Shown: piece after piece, positions 30,504-38,948 of the stretch
How the letters are laid out: each line of letters opens with the position of its first letter
How positions within the stretch are numbered: position 1 is the stretch's first letter
Source: Agromyces laixinhei
GTDB taxonomy: Bacteria; Actinomycetota; Actinomycetes; Actinomycetales; Microbacteriaceae
Direction of reading: 5' to 3'
Length of the DNA: 64,000 bases
Assembly: GCF_006337065.1 (NCBI RefSeq)
Contig: NZ_CP040872.1
Location: forward strand, 2,728,001 to 2,792,000
The notes under the pieces: generated by a model
Database searches by the model: none
What the model was told of the DNA's origin: nothing
Seen by the model: only the letters and a program-made list of their open reading frames with translations
Made by a program: the position numbers and the translations under genes

Positions 30504-31008
30504 CGACGAGCGTCGATTCGACACCCCGAAGGGCACCCGCCGCTCCAGGTCCTTCCGCGGCTCGGGCGACAGCGACCGCTTCGGTCGCTTCACCGAGTGG
30601 GTCGCGCGCGGCATGGGCACCCCCGGGTTCCTGCTCGGGCTTTCGGTGTTCGCGATCGGCTGGATGGGGTGGAACACCTTCGCCCCCGAGGAGTTGCGGT
30701 TCGACTCGTTCGCGATCGGCTTCACCGCCCTCACCCTGATGCTCTCCCTGCAGGCCTCGTACGCCGCGCCCCTCATCCTGCTCGCGCAGAACCGCCAAGA
30801 CGACCGCGACCGCGTGCAGATCGAGCAGGACCGCCAGCGTGCCGAGCGCAATCTCGCCGACACCGAGTACCTCGCCCGCGAGGTCGTGGCGCTTCGCCTC
30901 GCGATGAAAGACCTGGCGTCGCGCGACTTCATCCGCTCCGAGCTGCGCTCGATCATCGAGGAGCTCGACCGACGCGACGAGGAGGAGGCGGAGCATGCCG
31001 GCCGCTGA
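30490..31008 (+). CDS. DUF1003 family membrane protein
   Basis: A 172-residue protein with two transmembrane segments (GTPGFLLGLSVFAIGWMGWN at about 42-61 and FAIGFTALTLMLSLQASYAAPLILLAQNRQ at about 73-100) in the order typical of DUF1003, then a charged coiled-coil (DDRDRVQIEQDRQRAERNLA) and an acidic tail. AAGGAGG precedes the ATG. It overlaps both neighbours (14 nt each), so MgtE-like, DUF1003 and Mrp are co-translated. Function unknown. Confidence 0.92.
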   Translation: MARADDERRFDTPKGTRRSRSFRGSGDSDRFGRFTEWVARGMGTPGFLLGLSVFAIGWMGWNTFAPEELRFDSFAIGFTALTLMLSLQASYAAPLILLAQNRQDDRDRVQIEQDRQRAERNLADTEYLAREVVALRLAMKDLASRDFIRSELRSIIEELDRRDEEEAEHAGR

Positions 31009-32188
31009 GCCCGGTGCCACAGACCCGGCCGCGCTCGAGGCGGCCGTGCGTTTCGCGCTCACCGGCGTCATCGACCCCGAGATCCGCAAGCCCGTCACCG
31101 ATCTCGACATGGTCGATCACGTCGTCGCCCTCGACGGTGGTCGCGTCGAGGTCGGTATCCGCCTGACGATCGTCGGATGCCCCGCCTCCGACCGCATCGA
31201 ACGCGATGTGCGAGCGGCCGCCGAATCCGTCGTCGGCGACGGCAACGCCGAGGTCGTGCTCTCGGTCATGACGCCCGAGCAACGCTCCGCCCTCACCGAA
31301 CGCCTCCGCGGCGGCCGTGCTGCGCGCGGCAACCCCTTCGGGCCCGGCAGCCTCACCCGGGTCATCGCGGTCACGAGCGGGAAGGGCGGGGTCGGCAAGT
31401 CGACGATCACCGCGAACCTCGCCGTCGCGCTCGCGGCCCGGGGTCTCTCGGTGGGGCTCGTCGATGCCGACGTGCACGGCTTCTCGATCCCCGGGCTTCT
31501 CGGTCTCGTCGACGATGCCGGCCTCGCCGCCCGGCCGACGCGGGTCGACGAGATGATCCTGCCGCCCGTCGCGCACGGGGTGAAGGTCATCTCGATCGGC
31601 ATGTTCGTCGAACCGAGCGAAGAGGGCGGGCGCGCGTCATCCGTCGCCGTCGCCTGGCGCGGGCCGATGCTGCACCGCACGCTGTCGCAGTTCCTGACCG
31701 ACGTGTACTTCGGCGACCTCGACGTGCTGCTCGTCGACCTGCCGCCGGGCACAGGCGACGTCGCGATCTCGCTCGGGCAGTTGCTGCCCAACGCCGAGGT
31801 GCTCGTCGTGACGACCCCGCAGCCCGCGGCAGCCGACGTCGCCGAGCGTTCTGGGGTCGTCGCGCGACAGACGGGGCAGAAGCTCGTCGGTGTCGTCGAG
31901 AACATGGCCGGGTTCGCACAGCCCGGCGGCGAGGTCCTCGACCTCTTCGGCGCCGGCGGGGGCGCGATCGTGGCCGAACGTCTCTCGGAGGGCCAGCCCG
32001 TACCCGTGCCGCTCCTCGCGAGCGTGCCGCTCAGCGTGGCCCTTCGCCGCGGCGGCGACGAGGGCATCCCGGTCGTGCTCGCAGAGCCCGATGACCCCGC
32101 TGCCCGCGCGATCGAGCAGATCGCCGCGCAACTCGCCTCGGTGCCGCGCTCGCTGGCCGGCCGACGTCTCGATGTCACCGTGCGGTGA
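30995..32188 (+). CDS. mrp: Mrp/NBP35 family P-loop ATPase
   Basis: A 397-residue protein: an N-terminal MIP18/DUF59 domain (GVIDPEIRKPVTDLDMV) and a deviant Walker A ATPase domain (VTSGKGGVGKST near 125, VDADVHGFSIPGLLG, LLVDLPPGTGDVAISL, VVENMAGF). Relatives carry or insert Fe-S clusters. The CPxC cluster-binding motif found in NBP35/ApbC after VVENM is absent here (AQPGGEVLDLFGAGGG), as I recall for mycobacterial Mrp (Rv1229c). It is the third gene of the MgtE-DUF1003-Mrp unit, followed by a lipoprotein. Confidence 0.93.
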   Translation: MPAAEPGATDPAALEAAVRFALTGVIDPEIRKPVTDLDMVDHVVALDGGRVEVGIRLTIVGCPASDRIERDVRAAAESVVGDGNAEVVLSVMTPEQRSALTERLRGGRAARGNPFGPGSLTRVIAVTSGKGGVGKSTITANLAVALAARGLSVGLVDADVHGFSIPGLLGLVDDAGLAARPTRVDEMILPPVAHGVKVISIGMFVEPSEEGGRASSVAVAWRGPMLHRTLSQFLTDVYFGDLDVLLVDLPPGTGDVAISLGQLLPNAEVLVVTTPQPAAADVAERSGVVARQTGQKLVGVVENMAGFAQPGGEVLDLFGAGGGAIVAERLSEGQPVPVPLLASVPLSVALRRGGDEGIPVVLAEPDDPAARAIEQIAAQLASVPRSLAGRRLDVTVR

Positions 32189-33513: not shown

Positions 33514-33891
33514 ATGGCGATTGCTGCCGACTGGATCGAGCATCGGCGAGGCGACGGCGAACTGCTCGGGTGGATGCGACCCGACGGTGAGGGCTTCGTC
33601 GTCATCGACCTGCTCGGCCGCCCGTTGACCGATGCCGTCGACTGGCTGAGCGCTGAAGAGACACTCGAGGCGACCGGTATCGGCTACCTCGCCGAACTCT
33701 ACGAGCTGCGGCTCGACGACGGGCGCTGGATTCGCGTGCGCATCACCGAGGCCTCCTCGACGGTGCTCCGCGTGAAGAACGACGACTTCGGCGCGATCGA
33801 CGTGCCGACCGTCGAGTACGAGCTGCCATTCCCGATCGACGACCGGCTCCGCCCACTGACCGGTGAGCGGGCGTTCATCCTCGATCCCTGA
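33514..33891 (+). CDS. Conserved hypothetical protein
   Basis: A 125-residue soluble acidic protein (AIAADWIEHRRGDGELLGWM at the start; EGFVVIDLLGRPLTDAVDWL; RVRITEASSTVLRVKNDDFGAID). It looks like a compact beta-rich domain; I do not recognise a function. A strong AAGGAGG lies 6 nt before the ATG. Its last 17 bases overlap the convergent PLP-lyase gene. Confidence 0.78.
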   Translation: MAIAADWIEHRRGDGELLGWMRPDGEGFVVIDLLGRPLTDAVDWLSAEETLEATGIGYLAELYELRLDDGRWIRVRITEASSTVLRVKNDDFGAIDVPTVEYELPFPIDDRLRPLTGERAFILDP

Positions 33892-35425
33892 CCGGCTCCA
33901 CGACCCGCGCGAGCAGCTCGATGAGCAACCGCTCGGTGAGCTGGGGCGGCAGCTCTTCGACGAGCGCCAGCACCGGTGCGAGCGTGTCGGGCAGGGCGCC
34001 GGCCGAACCCGTGGTCTCGTCATCCGGAGCGACGCCGCCGAGCAGCCCGAACGCGCGCAGGAGACCTGCCGCGCTCTCCGAGTCGAGACCGGCGGATGCT
34101 CCGGCGAGCGCGTCGAGACCGCCGGGCACCGAGTCTGCGAGCGCTGCAACGAGAGCCGCCCCGTCGACGGCCGGCTCGCCGCGCACGGCGTCGGCCGCGG
34201 CGACGAGTGCCTGCGACAGCTCGCCGACCACGGTCTTCGTCACGGGTGTCACCGTGAGGTGGGTCGTGTGCGGCAGGCGCGTGCCGTCGGCCTGGGTGAG
34301 GGCGGGTTGCAGTTGCAGGTGCCAGCCGGCCGCGCGCGCGGCATCCGCCCAATGGTGCGGGTCGACCCGGCGGCCGGCCGGCACCGACTCGTCGGTGGCG
34401 ACGGCGAAGAGCGGGCCCGTCGGCTCGCCGACCACCGTCAACCCCTCGATGCCCGCGACGACCTCGCGCAGCGCGCCGGTCGCGCGCGCCGCCTGCGCGG
34501 TGAGGCCCGTGAATCCGTCGTCGCCGAGCGCCTCGATGATCGCCCACGCCGCGGCGAGCGGTCCGGCGGGCTTCGAGCCCATGAGCGTCGGGTTCACGAC
34601 GGGGTAGCCCGGCCACGCGGTCGTCGCGAAGTACTGGAACCGCTGCCGATCACGCCCCCTCGTGAGCAGCACCGAAACGCCCTTCGGCGCGTACCCGTAC
34701 TTGTGCAGGTCGGCTGAAAGGCTCGTGACGCCGGGCACCGACAGGTTCCACGCCGGCAGTTCCTCGGGCCAGAAGGCGAGTGCGAAGCCGCCGATGCACG
34801 CGTCGACGTGCAGGGCGATGCCCCGCCGGGCGGTGATCGCCGCGACATCCACGACCGGGTCGAGCGCCGCGAACGGGTACGACGGCGCGCTCACGACCAC
34901 GAGGGCCACGTCGTCGCCGAGCCGCTCCTCGATCGCCGTGGCCGAGACGGCGCCCGTCGCCGGGTCGACGGGCACGAGATCGAGCTCGAGCCCGAAGTAC
35001 TCGGCCGCCTTGTGGAACGCGGCGTGCACGGTGACGGGAGCGACCACCCGCGGCACCCGTGGCGTGCCCGCACGAACCGAACGCCACAGGTCGCGGGCCG
35101 ACTTGACCGCGAGCAGGCAGCTCTCGGTGCCCCCCGAGGTGACCGAGCCGGCGATCTCGTCGTCTTCCGCCCCGCCGAGCACCCGCCGTGCGAAGCCGAC
35201 GACGCCGACCTCCATTGCGGCGACGGAGGTGAACGTCGTCGGGTCGAGGCCGTTGACCGGCTGCACGAGCCTCGCGGCATCGGCTGCGAGCTCGTCGAGT
35301 TCGGCGAGGCCGGAGTCGTACACGTACGAGAGCACCCGGCCCCCGTGCGTCGGTGCGTCGGCAGCGCGCAGCGCCTCGAGTTCGGCGAGGATCTCAGGTG
35401 CATCGCGACGAAATCCGTGCATCAT
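33875..35425 (-). CDS. PLP-dependent lyase/decarboxylase of the sphingosine-1-phosphate lyase type
   Basis: A 516-residue fold-type I PLP enzyme. Motifs: TSGGTES (96-102, phosphate binding), VTVHAAFHKAAEYFGLELDL with H134, SAPSYPF (179-185), HVDACIGGF (206-214, D208 to the PLP nitrogen) and SADLHKYGYAPKG with K242 as Schiff-base lysine; later QYFATTAWPGYP and GSKPAGPLAAAWA. The HKYGYAPKG and HVDAC(I/L)GGF motifs match S1P lyases better than glutamate decarboxylases. S1P lyases split a 2-amino-3-hydroxy phosphate into an aldehyde and phosphoethanolamine; the substrate here is unknown. About 130 extra C-terminal residues follow the usual fold. ATG overlaps the MFS stop (ATGA), so both are co-translated. 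Confidence 0.82.
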   Translation of the reverse strand: MMHGFRRDAPEILAELEALRAADAPTHGGRVLSYVYDSGLAELDELAADAARLVQPVNGLDPTTFTSVAAMEVGVVGFARRVLGGAEDDEIAGSVTSGGTESCLLAVKSARDLWRSVRAGTPRVPRVVAPVTVHAAFHKAAEYFGLELDLVPVDPATGAVSATAIEERLGDDVALVVVSAPSYPFAALDPVVDVAAITARRGIALHVDACIGGFALAFWPEELPAWNLSVPGVTSLSADLHKYGYAPKGVSVLLTRGRDRQRFQYFATTAWPGYPVVNPTLMGSKPAGPLAAAWAIIEALGDDGFTGLTAQAARATGALREVVAGIEGLTVVGEPTGPLFAVATDESVPAGRRVDPHHWADAARAAGWHLQLQPALTQADGTRLPHTTHLTVTPVTKTVVGELSQALVAAADAVRGEPAVDGAALVAALADSVPGGLDALAGASAGLDSESAAGLLRAFGLLGGVAPDDETTGSAGALPDTLAPVLALVEELPPQLTERLLIELLARVVEPVRDRG

Positions 35426-36813
35426 GCCACCGTCTCCGCAGTCGGTGCGACGGCGTCGGCCTCGATATCGCCGCGCCGGAGCGGGTACCTGCGCAGCGCC
35501 ACGAGGCTCGCGGCCACGAGCAGCGCGGGGATCACGCTGAAGCTGATCGCGATGCCCGCGATCGCGGCCGGCGACTGGGTCACCGTCTGGGAGCCGGTCG
35601 ACTCCGCGTAGCCCGTCATCGCGAGCACGATCGTGAGCACCGTGGCGCCGAGCGCCATGCCGGCCGTCTCGCCGGCGGTCCAGACCCCGCCGAAGCTGCC
35701 GGCGCGGCCGATGCCGTGCGTGCTGGCGTCGTGCGAGATCACGTCGGGCAGCATCGCCATCGGCAGCGACTGCATGCCCGCATAGCCCGCGCCGGCGAGC
35801 GCGACGGGCACGTAGACCCAAGCCCCGGGCCCCCAGATCATGCCGACGAGGCTGAGCGCCGCGAGGCCGAAGAGCGTGCTCGCGAGCGCGAAGCCGCGCT
35901 CTTTGCCGACGCGGGCTGCCACCGCCTGCCAGACCGGCGCGAAGAGCACGGCCGGGCCGATGAGCGCCACGAAGAGCAAGGTGACCGCTCGCTCGTCGCG
36001 GAGCACCCAGGTCGCGACGAACTGGGCACCGGCGAGCATGAGTCCGGTCGCGAGTCCCTGCAGCACGAATGCGGCGAGCAGCGCGCGGAACGCGGCGCTC
36101 CGCCGCAGCGCTGCGAAGCCCTCGGCGTAGCCGGCACGGATGTCGCGGCGCGGCGCGGCATCCGTCGATGCACTGAGCTCGGGCGCACCGGCCTTCGCAG
36201 CCGTCGTCGCGGCGACGAACATGCCCGCGCCGATCACGAGGCCCGCGACGAGCGCCATCACGAGGTACCCCGTGCGCTCGTCGTCGAAGGCCGCCCGCAC
36301 CTCGGGGCCGCCGGCGCCGAAGAGCAGGATCGCGAGCGTGAGCACGACGACGCGCCAGGTGAGCAACCGCGTGCGGGCGTCGTAGTCGGCGGTGATCTCG
36401 GCCGGCAGCGCGACGTAGGGCACCTGGAAGATGCTGAACGCCGTGGCCGTCGTGAGGAAGGCGAGGAACACCCAGATGCCGGACGCCCCGGGGTCGAGTC
36501 CGGCCGGCACCGCGAAGGTCGCCGCGAATCCGACGGGCAGCGCGAGGGCGCCGACGATCATCCAGGTTCGGCGCGTGCCGGTGCGCGCGAGCGCTCGGTC
36601 GCTGCGCTCGCCGATCCACGGGTCGATCACGACATCCCACACCTTCGCGGCGGTGACGACGAGTCCGGCGACCAGTGCGGTCACCCCGAGCGTGTCGGTG
36701 AGGTAGTACACGAGCACGAGGCCGGGCAGTGTGGCGAAGCCCCCGGTGCCGATGGATCCGATCGCATAGCGGGTCACGACACCGCGGGACAGGGTTCGCT
36801 CCGATGCGGCCAT
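35422..36813 (-). CDS. MFS transporter, GPH (glycoside-pentoside-hexuronide) type
   Basis: A 463-residue transporter with about twelve transmembrane helices. LPGLVLVYYLTDTLG, KVWDVVIDPWIGERSDR and RRTWMIVGALALP are typical of the GPH cation symporters; PDVISHDASTHGIGRAGSFGGVW near residue 370 is the second conserved loop. The cargo is unknown, but its ATGA coupling to the S1P-lyase-like gene suggests it imports that enzyme's substrate or exports a product. The start is fixed at 36813 by TACACT 6 nt upstream (leaderless), divergent from the aldehyde dehydrogenase promoter. Confidence 0.88.
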   Translation of the reverse strand: MAASERTLSRGVVTRYAIGSIGTGGFATLPGLVLVYYLTDTLGVTALVAGLVVTAAKVWDVVIDPWIGERSDRALARTGTRRTWMIVGALALPVGFAATFAVPAGLDPGASGIWVFLAFLTTATAFSIFQVPYVALPAEITADYDARTRLLTWRVVVLTLAILLFGAGGPEVRAAFDDERTGYLVMALVAGLVIGAGMFVAATTAAKAGAPELSASTDAAPRRDIRAGYAEGFAALRRSAAFRALLAAFVLQGLATGLMLAGAQFVATWVLRDERAVTLLFVALIGPAVLFAPVWQAVAARVGKERGFALASTLFGLAALSLVGMIWGPGAWVYVPVALAGAGYAGMQSLPMAMLPDVISHDASTHGIGRAGSFGGVWTAGETAGMALGATVLTIVLAMTGYAESTGSQTVTQSPAAIAGIAISFSVIPALLVAASLVALRRYPLRRGDIEADAVAPTAETVA

Positions 36814-36819
36814 GGAGGC

Positions 36820-36825
36820 AGTGTA
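36820..36825 (-). promoter_or_regulatory. -10 box of leaderless promoter for the MFS-lyase operon
   Basis: TACACT on the minus strand, 6 nt before the ATG at 36813. Confidence 0.55.
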
Positions 36826-36882
36826 CTCACCCCCGACGGGCCGCATTCGGTCTCGCCGGAGAGCGAAGTGGGTCATTTGACC

Positions 36883-36888
36883 TAGACT
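36883..36888 (+). promoter_or_regulatory. -10 box of leaderless promoter for the aldehyde dehydrogenase gene
   Basis: TAGACT, 6 nt before the ATG at 36895. The in-frame GTG at 36889 directly abuts the box and is unlikely to be the start. Confidence 0.55.
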
Positions 36889-36894
36889 GTGCGC

Positions 36895-38445
36895 ATGCGT
36901 GCCCAAACCGTCTCCCCCGCCCTGTTCGCGAGCCTCGACGACGATGTCGTCGCTTCGGGCTCCGAGACCGTCTCCGTGCCGACCCCGTCAACGGGCGAGA
37001 CTCTGCATGAACTGCCGCGTTCGAGCGCCGACGACGTGCGCGACGCCTTCGCCCGAGCACGTCTCGCACAGCTCGCGTGGGCCCGCGTCGGCTTCGCCGA
37101 ACGCCGTCGCGTGCTGTTGCGGGCGCACGACCTCATCTTGGAGCGCCGCGAGATGCTGCTCGACCTCATCCAGCTCGAGAGCGGCAAGACCCGCGGCCAG
37201 GCGTTCGAGGAGATCTTCGCGGCGGTCTCCGTCACCCGGTACAACGCACTCGCGGCCCGCAAGGTGCTCCGCAGCCGCCCCGTTCGCTCAGGCCTGCCGA
37301 CCGTTGCGACCAGCCGGGTGCGATACCGCCCGAAGGGCGTCGCGGGCGTCATCACGCCGTGGAACTTCGCGCTCAGTCTCGTCGCGATGGACGTCATTCC
37401 CGCGCTCGCCGCCGGTTGCGGCGTCGTGCAGAAGGCCGACGACCAGGGCGCCCTCTCGATCCTCGCGCTGCGACGCGCCTTCATCGACGCCGGCGTTCCC
37501 GCCGCGCTCTGGGCGGTCGTCGCCGGGCCGGCGGCCGAGGTCGGCGAAGCGCTGACGGATGTCGCGGACTTCATCTGCTTCACGGGCTCGACGGCCACCG
37601 GCCGCACGATCGGCGAGAAGGCGGGCCGACGCCTCGTCGGCGCCTCGCTCGAACTCGGCGGGAAGAACGCCCTGCTCGTGCTCGACGATGTCGACCCCGG
37701 GCAGGCCGCGGCGAACGCCGCGCACGCCGCCTTCTCTGCCATGGGCCAGCTCTGCGTCTCGGTCGAGCGCATCTACGTGCAGCGGAAGGTCGCCGGCCCG
37801 TTCCAGCGTGCGCTCATCGAGCGACTGCGGGCAGCTCGGCTCGGCTCGGAGCTCGACTTCGACGCCGACTTCGGATCGCTCGCGAGCGCCGCGCAACTCG
37901 CCCGGGTGCAGGCGCATCTCGACGATGCGGTCGAGAAGGGCGCCGTGGTGCTCGTCGGCGGCAAGCACCGGCCCGACATCGGACCGTGGTTCTTCGAGCC
38001 GACGGTGCTCACCGGCGTCACGCCGGACATGCTCGTGTACGCCGAAGAGACCTTCGGGGCGATCGCCTCGCTCTACCTCGTCGATGGCGACGACGAGGCT
38101 GTGCTCGCGGCCAACGCGGGCGACTACGGCCTGAACGCCGCCGTCTTCACGCGCTCCGCCGGCCGGGCGCGCCGTGTCGCCGACGCGATCGAGGCCGGCA
38201 GCGTCAACATCAATGAGGGGTACCGCGGCTCGTTCGCCTCGGTCGCCGCGCCGATGGGCGGCGTCAAGCAGTCGGGCCTCGGTCGGCGCAATGGCGAGGC
38301 GGGTATGCTGCGCTTCGTCGAGCCCGTCACGATCTCATCGACGACCGGCCTGCTGCAGCTGCCGCGCACGGGGCGGGAGTACGAACAGCAGGCACCGCTG
38401 CTCATGCTGCTCGCCCAGGCGCTGAAGGCACTGCGGCTGCGCTGA
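36895..38445 (+). CDS. Succinic-semialdehyde dehydrogenase type (GabD2-like) aldehyde dehydrogenase
   Basis: A 516-residue ALDH. Conserved parts: VITPWNFALSL (N157), K180 in VVQKADD, FTGSTATGRTIGEKAG (228-244), LELGGKN with catalytic E253, GQLCVSVERIYV with nucleophile C287, ETFGAIASLYLV and GVKQSGLGRRNGEAG. The length, the CVSVERIYV phrase and NINEGYRGSFASVAAPMGG closely follow actinobacterial GabD2 (Rv1731 type). It oxidises an aldehyde to an acid with NAD(P)+. Being divergent from the S1P-lyase-like/MFS operon, it may act on the aldehyde released by that lyase rather than in GABA degradation. Confidence 0.88.
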   Translation: MRAQTVSPALFASLDDDVVASGSETVSVPTPSTGETLHELPRSSADDVRDAFARARLAQLAWARVGFAERRRVLLRAHDLILERREMLLDLIQLESGKTRGQAFEEIFAAVSVTRYNALAARKVLRSRPVRSGLPTVATSRVRYRPKGVAGVITPWNFALSLVAMDVIPALAAGCGVVQKADDQGALSILALRRAFIDAGVPAALWAVVAGPAAEVGEALTDVADFICFTGSTATGRTIGEKAGRRLVGASLELGGKNALLVLDDVDPGQAAANAAHAAFSAMGQLCVSVERIYVQRKVAGPFQRALIERLRAARLGSELDFDADFGSLASAAQLARVQAHLDDAVEKGAVVLVGGKHRPDIGPWFFEPTVLTGVTPDMLVYAEETFGAIASLYLVDGDDEAVLAANAGDYGLNAAVFTRSAGRARRVADAIEAGSVNINEGYRGSFASVAAPMGGVKQSGLGRRNGEAGMLRFVEPVTISSTTGLLQLPRTGREYEQQAPLLMLLAQALKALRLR

Positions 38446-38462: not shown

Positions 38463-38855
38463 TCAGGTCGCTTCGGAGTCGAAGGGTGCCGGCTGCTCGG
38501 GACCGAGCGGTTCGCGCCCCCGCTTCTGCTGCAGGTAGGCCGAGTTCTCGCCCGCAGAGGTTCGTGCCACCGTGGGCGTCGGGGCCTCCTCGGCGAACGG
38601 GTCGACGTCGGTGAGCGCCTCGCGGATGATGCGTCGCGGGTCGTACTGGCGGGGGTCGAGCTTCTTCCAGTCGACGTCGTCGAAGTCGGAGCCCATCTCG
38701 TTGCGCATGCGGTCTTTCGCGCCGTTGGCCATGTCGCGCAGCGATCTGACGAGCCGGCCGAGTTGCGCCGCGTAGTGCGGCAGCCGCTCGGGCCCGAGCA
38801 GGAAGACGGCGATCACCCCTACGATGAGGAGCTTCTCGAACGTCAGACCGAACAC
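38463..38855 (-). CDS. tatB: Sec-independent (twin-arginine) translocase subunit TatB
   Basis: A 130-residue TatB: FGLTFEKLLIVGVIAVFLLGPERLPHYAAQLG with the N-terminal transmembrane helix and GPERLP hinge, then an amphipathic helix (VRSLRDMANGAKDRMRNEMG) and an acidic, disordered tail. It forms the substrate-receptor complex with TatC for export of folded proteins. TATCCT 6 nt before the GTG at 38855 defines a leaderless start and excludes the longer frame. In mycobacteria tatB follows sigE-rseA-htrA; those genes are absent here and the O-methyltransferase is divergent and adjacent. Confidence 0.9.
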   Translation of the reverse strand: MFGLTFEKLLIVGVIAVFLLGPERLPHYAAQLGRLVRSLRDMANGAKDRMRNEMGSDFDDVDWKKLDPRQYDPRRIIREALTDVDPFAEEAPTPTVARTSAGENSAYLQQKRGREPLGPEQPAPFDSEAT

Positions 38856-38861
38856 CCATAC

Positions 38862-38867
38862 AGGATA
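38862..38867 (-). promoter_or_regulatory. -10 box of leaderless promoter for tatB
   Basis: TATCCT on the minus strand, 6 nt before the GTG at 38855. Confidence 0.55.
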
Positions 38868-38948
38868 GTCGGCGGCGAGGCGACTGGGAGACACGCCGTC
38901 GGCACCCTAGGCTGAGGGACTGAGAGAGATGCATCCGGGAGACGCCAC

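What the first reader, a model, noticed from the sequence alone, without database searches (positions are those of the whole stretch)
33875..38445. S1P-lyase-like enzyme, coupled MFS carrier and divergent aldehyde dehydrogenase: a candidate undescribed catabolic unit
The PLP enzyme carries S1P-lyase motifs (HVDACIGGF, SADLHKYGYAPKG with K242, AAFHKAAEYFGL) rather than plain glutamate-decarboxylase ones, plus a ~130-residue C-terminal extension. It is ATGA-coupled to a GPH-type transporter and divergent from a GabD2-like ALDH. S1P lyases release an aldehyde, which an ALDH could oxidise. The three genes interrupt an otherwise conserved Mrp-tatB block. The hypothesis: import of a phosphorylated or hydroxylated amine, retro-aldol cleavage, oxidation of the aldehyde.
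Basis: partly seen in the sequence, partly recalled or inferred. Interest (0 to 1): 0.7.

Follow-up and report, generated by a model that had tools for sequence, protein, structure and literature searches.

The report
Transporter-coupled relative of sphingolipid-cleaving enzyme
This stretch holds a two-gene unit, an enzyme related to the one that cuts the lipid signal sphingosine-1-phosphate and a transporter whose gene overlaps it, in which the pocket that grips the phosphate is rebuilt, so the unit probably takes up and cuts some other amino compound; the aldehyde dehydrogenase next door looks like only a neighbour.

Summary
The PLP enzyme (33875-35425, -) is nearest to sphingosine-1-phosphate lyases (SPL), ahead of decarboxylases, in sequence and predicted fold, and overlaps an MFS_2 transporter gene by 4 bases. 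The aldehyde dehydrogenase is a GabD2-type SSADH resident in the Mrp-tatB block: in 11 of 11 family genomes that have it without the enzyme it still lies between Mrp and TatB. Of 150 family genomes 41 have enzyme and transporter, 1 an enzyme fragment without a scored transporter, 2 the transporter alone. The enzyme belongs to a separate clade ("D-type", my name) in which two of five substrate-phosphate positions are replaced (StSPL Ala103 to Tyr, His129 to Asp) and entry Tyr482 is gone. Of 39 phylum-level loci, 14 of 14 D-type and 1 of 25 other SPL-like genes have a multi-span membrane-protein gene directly beside them; besides MFS_2 it can be GltS-like. Best reading: uptake of a non-phosphorylated amino compound, then PLP-dependent C-C cleavage. 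Substrate unknown; a phosphorylated substrate and use of this ALDH are disfavoured, not excluded.

The parts
33875..35425 (-). PLP-dependent enzyme of the sphingosine-1-phosphate-lyase-like family, 'D-type' subfamily, 516 aa (P0001)
35422..36813 (-). MFS_2/GPH-type transporter, 463 aa, upstream gene of the two-gene unit
35422..35425 (-). ATGA: start codon of the PLP gene overlapping the stop codon of the MFS gene
   Evidence: an NTGA overlap in 57 of 71 genus/family/order loci and 24 of 41 named loci that have the pair
34700..34702 (-). codon of Lys242, the Schiff-base lysine (StSPL Lys311)
35243..35245 (-). codon of Asp61, at the place of StSPL His129 (substrate-phosphate ligand)
35324..35326 (-). 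codon of Tyr34, at the place of StSPL Ala103 (substrate-phosphate pocket)
36889..38445 (+). GabD2-type succinic semialdehyde dehydrogenase (start GTG 36889 or ATG 36895); neighbour, resident of the Mrp-TatB block, not taken as part of the unit
30995..32188 (+).
38463..38894 (-).

Best explanation
A two-gene uptake-and-cleavage unit. An MFS_2 transporter, probably cation-coupled, brings in a small amino compound; the translationally coupled PLP enzyme, an SPL-fold lyase whose phosphate-head-group pocket has been rebuilt (Tyr34, Asp61, Gln371, loss of the entry Tyr), forms an external aldimine with it through Lys242 and breaks a C-C bond at the amine carbon. The substrate is more likely a non-phosphorylated amino alcohol or amino acid than a sphingoid-base phosphate. 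Shown by sequence: gene overlap, co-inheritance, family, residue changes. Inferred: direction of transport, bond cleaved (retro-aldol or decarboxylation), substrate class. The GabD2-type ALDH is not a dedicated third step.
Against: Three of five phosphate-site residues are kept (StSPL Tyr105, Asn126, Lys317), and an active bacterial S1P lyase has Gln at the His129 place (PMC6148460 Table 3), so phosphate binding is not excluded. 30 of 80 named loci show no multi-span neighbour by the same rule, among them all 5 Myxococcota and 12 Streptosporangiaceae loci; about six of the 30 are cut by contig ends. L065 has the enzyme without the MFS. The MFS is nearest to lysophospholipid symporters in the PDB, which would suit a lipid. 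No substrate, activity or transport direction was measured. Pocket residues were placed by sequence alignment, not on coordinates.
Confidence: 0.55

Rival explanations
1. One reading: import of a phosphorylated (or hydroxylated) amine, S1P-lyase-type retro-aldol cleavage, and oxidation of the released aldehyde by the divergent ALDH as one three-gene pathway.
For: SPL family membership; Tyr105, Asn126 and Lys317 equivalents kept; ALDH neighbours the pair in 32 of 32 fetched same-genus regions; PLP and ALDH co-occur above chance over 150 genomes (24 of 42 against 11 of 108, Fisher p 7e-9, not corrected for kinship); three Nocardioidaceae loci have a 43% identical ALDH about 2-3 kb away, and 5 of 25 non-D loci have some ALDH in the stretch, in L126 directly upstream of the PLP gene; nearest PDB entries of the MFS are lysophospholipid symporters.
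Against: ALDH lies between Mrp and TatB without the pair in 11 of 11 family genomes and in the two genus members without the pair that were fetched (L066, L067; a third, G027, was not fetched). No ALDH beside the pair in the 10 relocated family loci, nor in 9 of 27 at the Mrp locus (one of the 9 cut by a contig end). ALDH is a GabD2-type SSADH by an equivalog model. 3 of 80 named loci with such an ALDH in the stretch is about what my own arithmetic expects from 15 and 17 ALDH hits in two near-complete genomes. His129 and Ala103 replaced.
Confidence: 0.15
2. The enzyme is an amino-acid decarboxylase (SPL scaffold, decarboxylase chemistry) and the partner is an amino-acid or amine carrier, as in GadB/GadC-like pairs (recalled comparison): the rebuilt head-group pocket holds the side chain of the amino acid.
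For: Unrelated partners include a GltS-like (sodium/glutamate symporter family) protein and an ABC permease of the branched-chain amino acid/urea type (PF02653; L117/L156); other SPL-like, non-D enzymes on six annotated alphaproteobacterial plasmid stretches share the stretch with amino-acid ABC transporter genes, not always adjacent; a class III aminotransferase gene follows the GltS-like gene in L182.
Against: Scores for MfnA and GAD models are far below cut-offs (129 of 299 and 75 of 380 bits); the C-terminal region and overall alignment are SPL-like. The plasmid enzymes are different subfamilies.
Confidence: 0.25
3. A scavenging or detoxifying retro-aldolase for non-phosphorylated sphingoid-like amino diols, with the MFS as a lipid-like carrier.
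For: Nearest PDB relatives of the MFS are lysophosphatidylcholine symporters (E 2e-16) ahead of MelB; a Burkholderia S1P lyase breaks down sphingosine at about 8% of its activity with S1P (PMC5234717, passages).
Against: The substrate-entry Tyr482 of SPLs is absent from the D-type rows counted, and where the partner is GltS-like a lipid is an unlikely cargo (inference).
Confidence: 0.1

Closest known systems
Sphingosine-1-phosphate lyase (StSPL of Symbiobacterium thermophilum, PDB 3mad; yeast Dpl1p; human SGPL1)
   Same: Fold over nearly the whole length including the C-terminal region, Schiff-base Lys, PLP-binding His/Asp/Cys/His and GGT, three of five substrate-phosphate residues
   Different: Ala103 to Tyr, His129 to Asp, Tyr482 absent, Gln371 in place of Asn, extra C-terminal residues, gene overlap with a transporter, separate clade
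Group II decarboxylases (archaeal MfnA, GadB)
   Same: Fold type and PF00282 family
   Different: Equivalog scores far below cut-off; weaker and mostly shorter structural match
GPH/MFS_2 symporters (MelB; MFSD2A)
   Same: PF13347 over the full length; Asp60 and, in the window's protein, Asp64 at the cation sites of MelB Asp55/Asp59; most of the 51 aligned sequences have Asn at 64
   Different: Gly and Gln at the two galactoside-binding Asp places; an invariant Glu382 that aligns with MelB Val376, next to Lys377
GabD2-type succinic semialdehyde dehydrogenase (neighbour)
   Same: NF006916 above its curated cut-off
   Different: Not taken as part of the unit

Membership tests
Sphingosine-1-phosphate lyase (EC 4.1.2.27) | Nearest solved relatives and whole-length fold are S1P lyases | tested here: met
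Sphingosine-1-phosphate lyase (EC 4.1.2.27) | PLP residues (GGT, His201, Asp274, Cys276, His310, Lys311 of StSPL) | tested here: met
   Invariant G98 G99 T100 H134 D208 C210 H241 K242 in the 30 rows of A3; roles from PMC6148460 Table 3
Sphingosine-1-phosphate lyase (EC 4.1.2.27) | Substrate-phosphate site Tyr105, Ala103 (or Thr), Asn126, His129 (or Gln), Lys317 | tested here: not met
   Three kept, Ala103 to Tyr34 and His129 to Asp61
Sphingosine-1-phosphate lyase (EC 4.1.2.27) | Substrate-entry Tyr482 | tested here: not met
   No Tyr in that column in 166 rows of the three D-type groups (one a gap); Tyr in 25 of 25 other SPL-like rows
Sphingosine-1-phosphate lyase (EC 4.1.2.27) | Falls in the clade of StSPL | tested here: not met
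   Separate side of a branch, SH-aLRT 99.4; StSPL with six His129-type rows at 98 (quick method, no bootstrap; an AU test begun there did not finish)
Sphingosine-1-phosphate lyase (EC 4.1.2.27) | Cleaves S1P to hexadecenal and phosphoethanolamine | not testable with these tools
   assay needed
Group II amino-acid decarboxylase (MfnA, GAD) | Reaches the curated cut-off of the equivalog models | tested here: not met
   TIGR03812 129 of 299 bits, TIGR01788 75 of 380 bits
GPH:cation symporter | Pfam MFS_2 over the full length | tested here: met
   256 bits
GPH:cation symporter | Curated cut-off of the GPH subfamily model TIGR00792 | tested here: not met
   150 of 231 bits; distant MFS_2 member
GPH:cation symporter | Galactoside-binding Asp19 and Asp124 of MelB | tested here: not met
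   Gly24 (51 of 51) and Gln130 (50 of 51), matched by eye on the printed alignment (roles PMC8329300, passages)
Succinic semialdehyde dehydrogenase GabD2 (neighbour) | Equivalog model NF006916 above cut-off | tested here: met
   632 bits, cut-off 521

The most novel reading that the evidence does not exclude
A widespread, undescribed uptake-and-cleavage module: a subfamily of S1P-lyase-fold enzymes, found in Actinomycetota, Thermodesulfobacteriota, Myxococcota, Spirochaetota and others, has exchanged its phosphate pocket for another head-group pocket and is repeatedly paired with transporters of unrelated families (MFS_2, GltS-like), so a new PLP lyase reaction on a non-phosphorylated amino compound is encoded next to its own carrier.
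Probability: 0.5. Interest if true: 0.7.

Novelty: new variant of a known kind. Interest (0 to 1): 0.5.

Why it matters
Sources name close relatives 'sphinganine-1-phosphate aldolase', 'glutamate/tyrosine decarboxylase-like' or 'aspartate aminotransferase family'; the residue pattern argues that these labels mislead for this clade. The motifs YVYD and NGLDPT plus a transporter neighbour give a simple test for re-annotation, and the enzyme-carrier pair is a small, easily expressed target for finding a new substrate. It also bears on the history of the S1P-lyase pocket: of 39 phylum-level SPL-like loci only 6 carry His at that place.

Tried and rejected
Three-gene unit: rejected by the block survey and presence table. 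Link to histidine degradation: hut-like genes (read by eye) lie near the pair in several relocated loci of related genera, but the other relocated loci have other neighbours, so I take it as one local gene order. Link to dapD/dapE (L118, L121; read by eye, DapE similarity): both loci come from one genus (g190), one context. Cysteate/taurine idea from TauE and aminotransferase neighbours: too few loci; the one paper search returned nothing. Paper searches: by title and start of abstract I saw no listed paper on this clade, which proves no absence, since most subscription papers are not held. I read passages of PMC5234717 (and its outline), PMC6148460 and PMC8329300, not whole texts. The AU test of a clade joining P0001 to the S1P-lyase rows did not finish and was not repeated. 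In one search the decarboxylase outgroup rows were very long and did not stay together; one search leaves them out. In one search three labels (T169, D274, C276) sat one residue off; one search gives the right columns. In one search the GltS count (6) missed L167 and L169, because the match ran past the gene end; it is 8.
Full report
What is there. On the minus strand an MFS_2 transporter gene (35422-36813) is followed by a PLP-enzyme gene (33875-35425) with a 4-base ATGA overlap; an aldehyde dehydrogenase gene (36889-38445) runs the other way. The genome is one 3.44 Mb contig; the nearest named proteins are from Agromyces.

The three genes. In the same genus 33 of 36 other genomes have the enzyme at E below 1e-190. 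I fetched regions for 32 of them (not G014, at a contig edge): 32 of 32 show PLP-MFS-ALDH-TatB in this order; in 31 Mrp is seen on the other side, L054 does not show it. Of the three genus members without a strong hit I fetched two; in both ALDH is still between Mrp and TatB with no PLP or MFS match (L066, L067). In the family sample of 150 genomes: enzyme in 42 (one, G188, a fragment), MFS in 43, both in 41; ALDH in 35; enzyme and ALDH in 24 (thresholds E 1e-40, 1e-80, 1e-130; only up to 10 or 11 first-look candidates per genome were scored). All 11 ALDH-without-enzyme genomes have ALDH between Mrp and TatB, two of them at 45% identity in 1.4 Mb genomes. Of the 39 family genomes outside the genus with an enzyme hit I fetched 37, G188, and not G084. 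In the 37, MFS is next to the enzyme in 37; 27 lie at the Mrp locus (18 with ALDH, 9 without, one of the 9 cut by a contig end), 10 lie elsewhere with no ALDH in the fetched stretch; one of those genomes, G138, has the ALDH elsewhere. One genome keeps the MFS alone at the Mrp locus (L241), one elsewhere (L242), and G188 has remnants of both genes (L243). Of three loci from other families of the order, two have the pair and one (L065) the enzyme alone. So ALDH reads best as a resident of the block and the pair as the variable part between Mrp and ALDH; the remnants show losses, and how often the pair was gained or lost is not settled. PLP and ALDH do co-occur above chance (Fisher p 7e-9), which a shared locus and kinship can explain; a functional link is not excluded. 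Away from the block a similar ALDH is in 3 of 80 named stretches and in 5 of 39 phylum-level ones, all 5 non-D.

A distinct subfamily. I aligned the enzyme with 112 loci and later with the 80 best named loci as well. Residue roles are from Table 3 of PMC6148460. At the place of StSPL His129, 72 of 72 genus/family/order loci have Asp. Of 60 match rows outside the family in the phylum search I fetched 39 (L106-L144): 14 have Asp, 15 Asn, 6 His and 4 Gln. I call the Asp rows D-type, so the 14 are so by definition. Not by definition: those 14 have Tyr at StSPL Ala103 in 13 (0 of 25 others) and no Tyr at Tyr482 (25 of 25 others keep it), and D-type rows form one side of a branch (54 rows, SH-aLRT 99.4; quick method, 80 rows; 94 with outgroups in). 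StSPL groups with the six His rows (98). Over the three groups of 166 rows Ala103 is Tyr in 161, Lys317 is kept in 165 and Asn126 in 164. The 80 named loci were found with the patterns [VE]NGLDPT[VTA]F or SxDLHK[YF][GA]Y, so their 79 of 80 Asp is biased by selection; they are the best 80 of at least 590 relatives, and some are the same contigs as unnamed loci (L150 and L115, L156 and L117).

Transporter neighbours. By a hydropathy rule (same strand, within 350 bases, 7 or more hydrophobic segments), 14 of 14 D-type and 1 of 25 other phylum-level loci have such a neighbour. In ten of the 14 it is the MFS_2 gene upstream, in two a GltS-like gene downstream (L118, L121; 32-33% identity), in L114 an MFS_1 gene and in L117 an ABC permease gene, tested on the same contig as L156 (PF02653; below the cut-offs of the urea and LivH models). 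Of 80 named loci, 41 have the MFS_2 gene upstream, all in Actinomycetota (41 of 56), and 8 a GltS-like gene downstream (three Thermodesulfobacteriota, two Spirochaetota, a SAR324 MAG, a MAG labelled WOR-3 and a delta-type worm symbiont MAG); PF03616 was reached above its cut-off in 2 of 6 GltS-like proteins tested. 30 of 80 show no multi-span neighbour, among them all 5 Myxococcota and 12 Streptosporangiaceae loci; about six of the 30 are cut near the gene by contig ends. The rows are related, so these counts are not independent events. NTGA overlaps join the pair in 57 of 71 and 24 of 41 loci.

The transporter. Its nearest PDB relatives are lysophosphatidylcholine symporters, then MelB. MelB's two galactoside-binding Asp residues (PMC8329300, passages) are Gly24 (51 of 51) and Gln130 (50 of 51) in an alignment of 51 sequences, the window's included; Asp60 at the cation site is invariant, Asp64 is Asn in 46; Glu382 is invariant and aligns with MelB Val376, next to Lys377 (residues matched by eye). 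A sugar cargo of MelB type is therefore unlikely.

Mechanism. Shown: a co-inherited enzyme-carrier pair with overlapping genes, S1P-lyase catalytic residues and an altered head-group pocket. Inferred: import, then external aldimine at Lys242 and C-C cleavage of a non-phosphorylated amino compound. Whether the bond broken is C2-C3 (retro-aldol) or C-COO (decarboxylation) is open. Amino-acid-type partners lean toward an amino-acid-like substrate: GltS-like proteins, one ABC permease, and, for other SPL-like subfamilies, amino-acid ABC genes in the same stretch on six of six annotated alphaproteobacterial plasmid regions opened (7 of 11 plasmid hits were opened, one without annotation).

Noticed in passing
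L244, L245, L246, L247, L249, L250 (alphaproteobacterial plasmids): Other, non-D SPL-like subfamilies (other residues at the His129 place) lie in stretches with amino-acid ABC transporter genes, GntR or LysR regulators and, in four, M20 hydrolases; L246 also has an M24 protein resembling ectoine hydrolase (270 bits, cut-off 613) and a gene annotated Tpa.
   Followed up: partly
L166, L167, L169, L170, L174: GltS-linked D-type loci also carry a TauE/SafE-type gene beside or near the enzyme (PF01925 tested on L169 and L170, the rest by similarity).
   Followed up: partly
G095:C1:143783-148211 and G091:C16:179250-184964: Two family genomes have a second copy of the MFS gene (52-55% identical to the window's) on the other side of the enzyme gene.
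   Followed up: no
L117 and L156: What looks like one 39,825-base contig is counted in the window's phylum in one collection and titled Acidobacteria in the other.
   Followed up: no
L209 and L109: Two loci with nearly identical enzymes: L109 has the MFS gene upstream, L209 shows only an 88-residue partial match to that stretch.
   Followed up: partly
L228:2840-10360: A SAR324 MAG locus groups an SPL-like D-clade enzyme with a TPP enzyme, an MFS gene resembling galactonate transporters and a GPH-like MFS gene.
   Followed up: no
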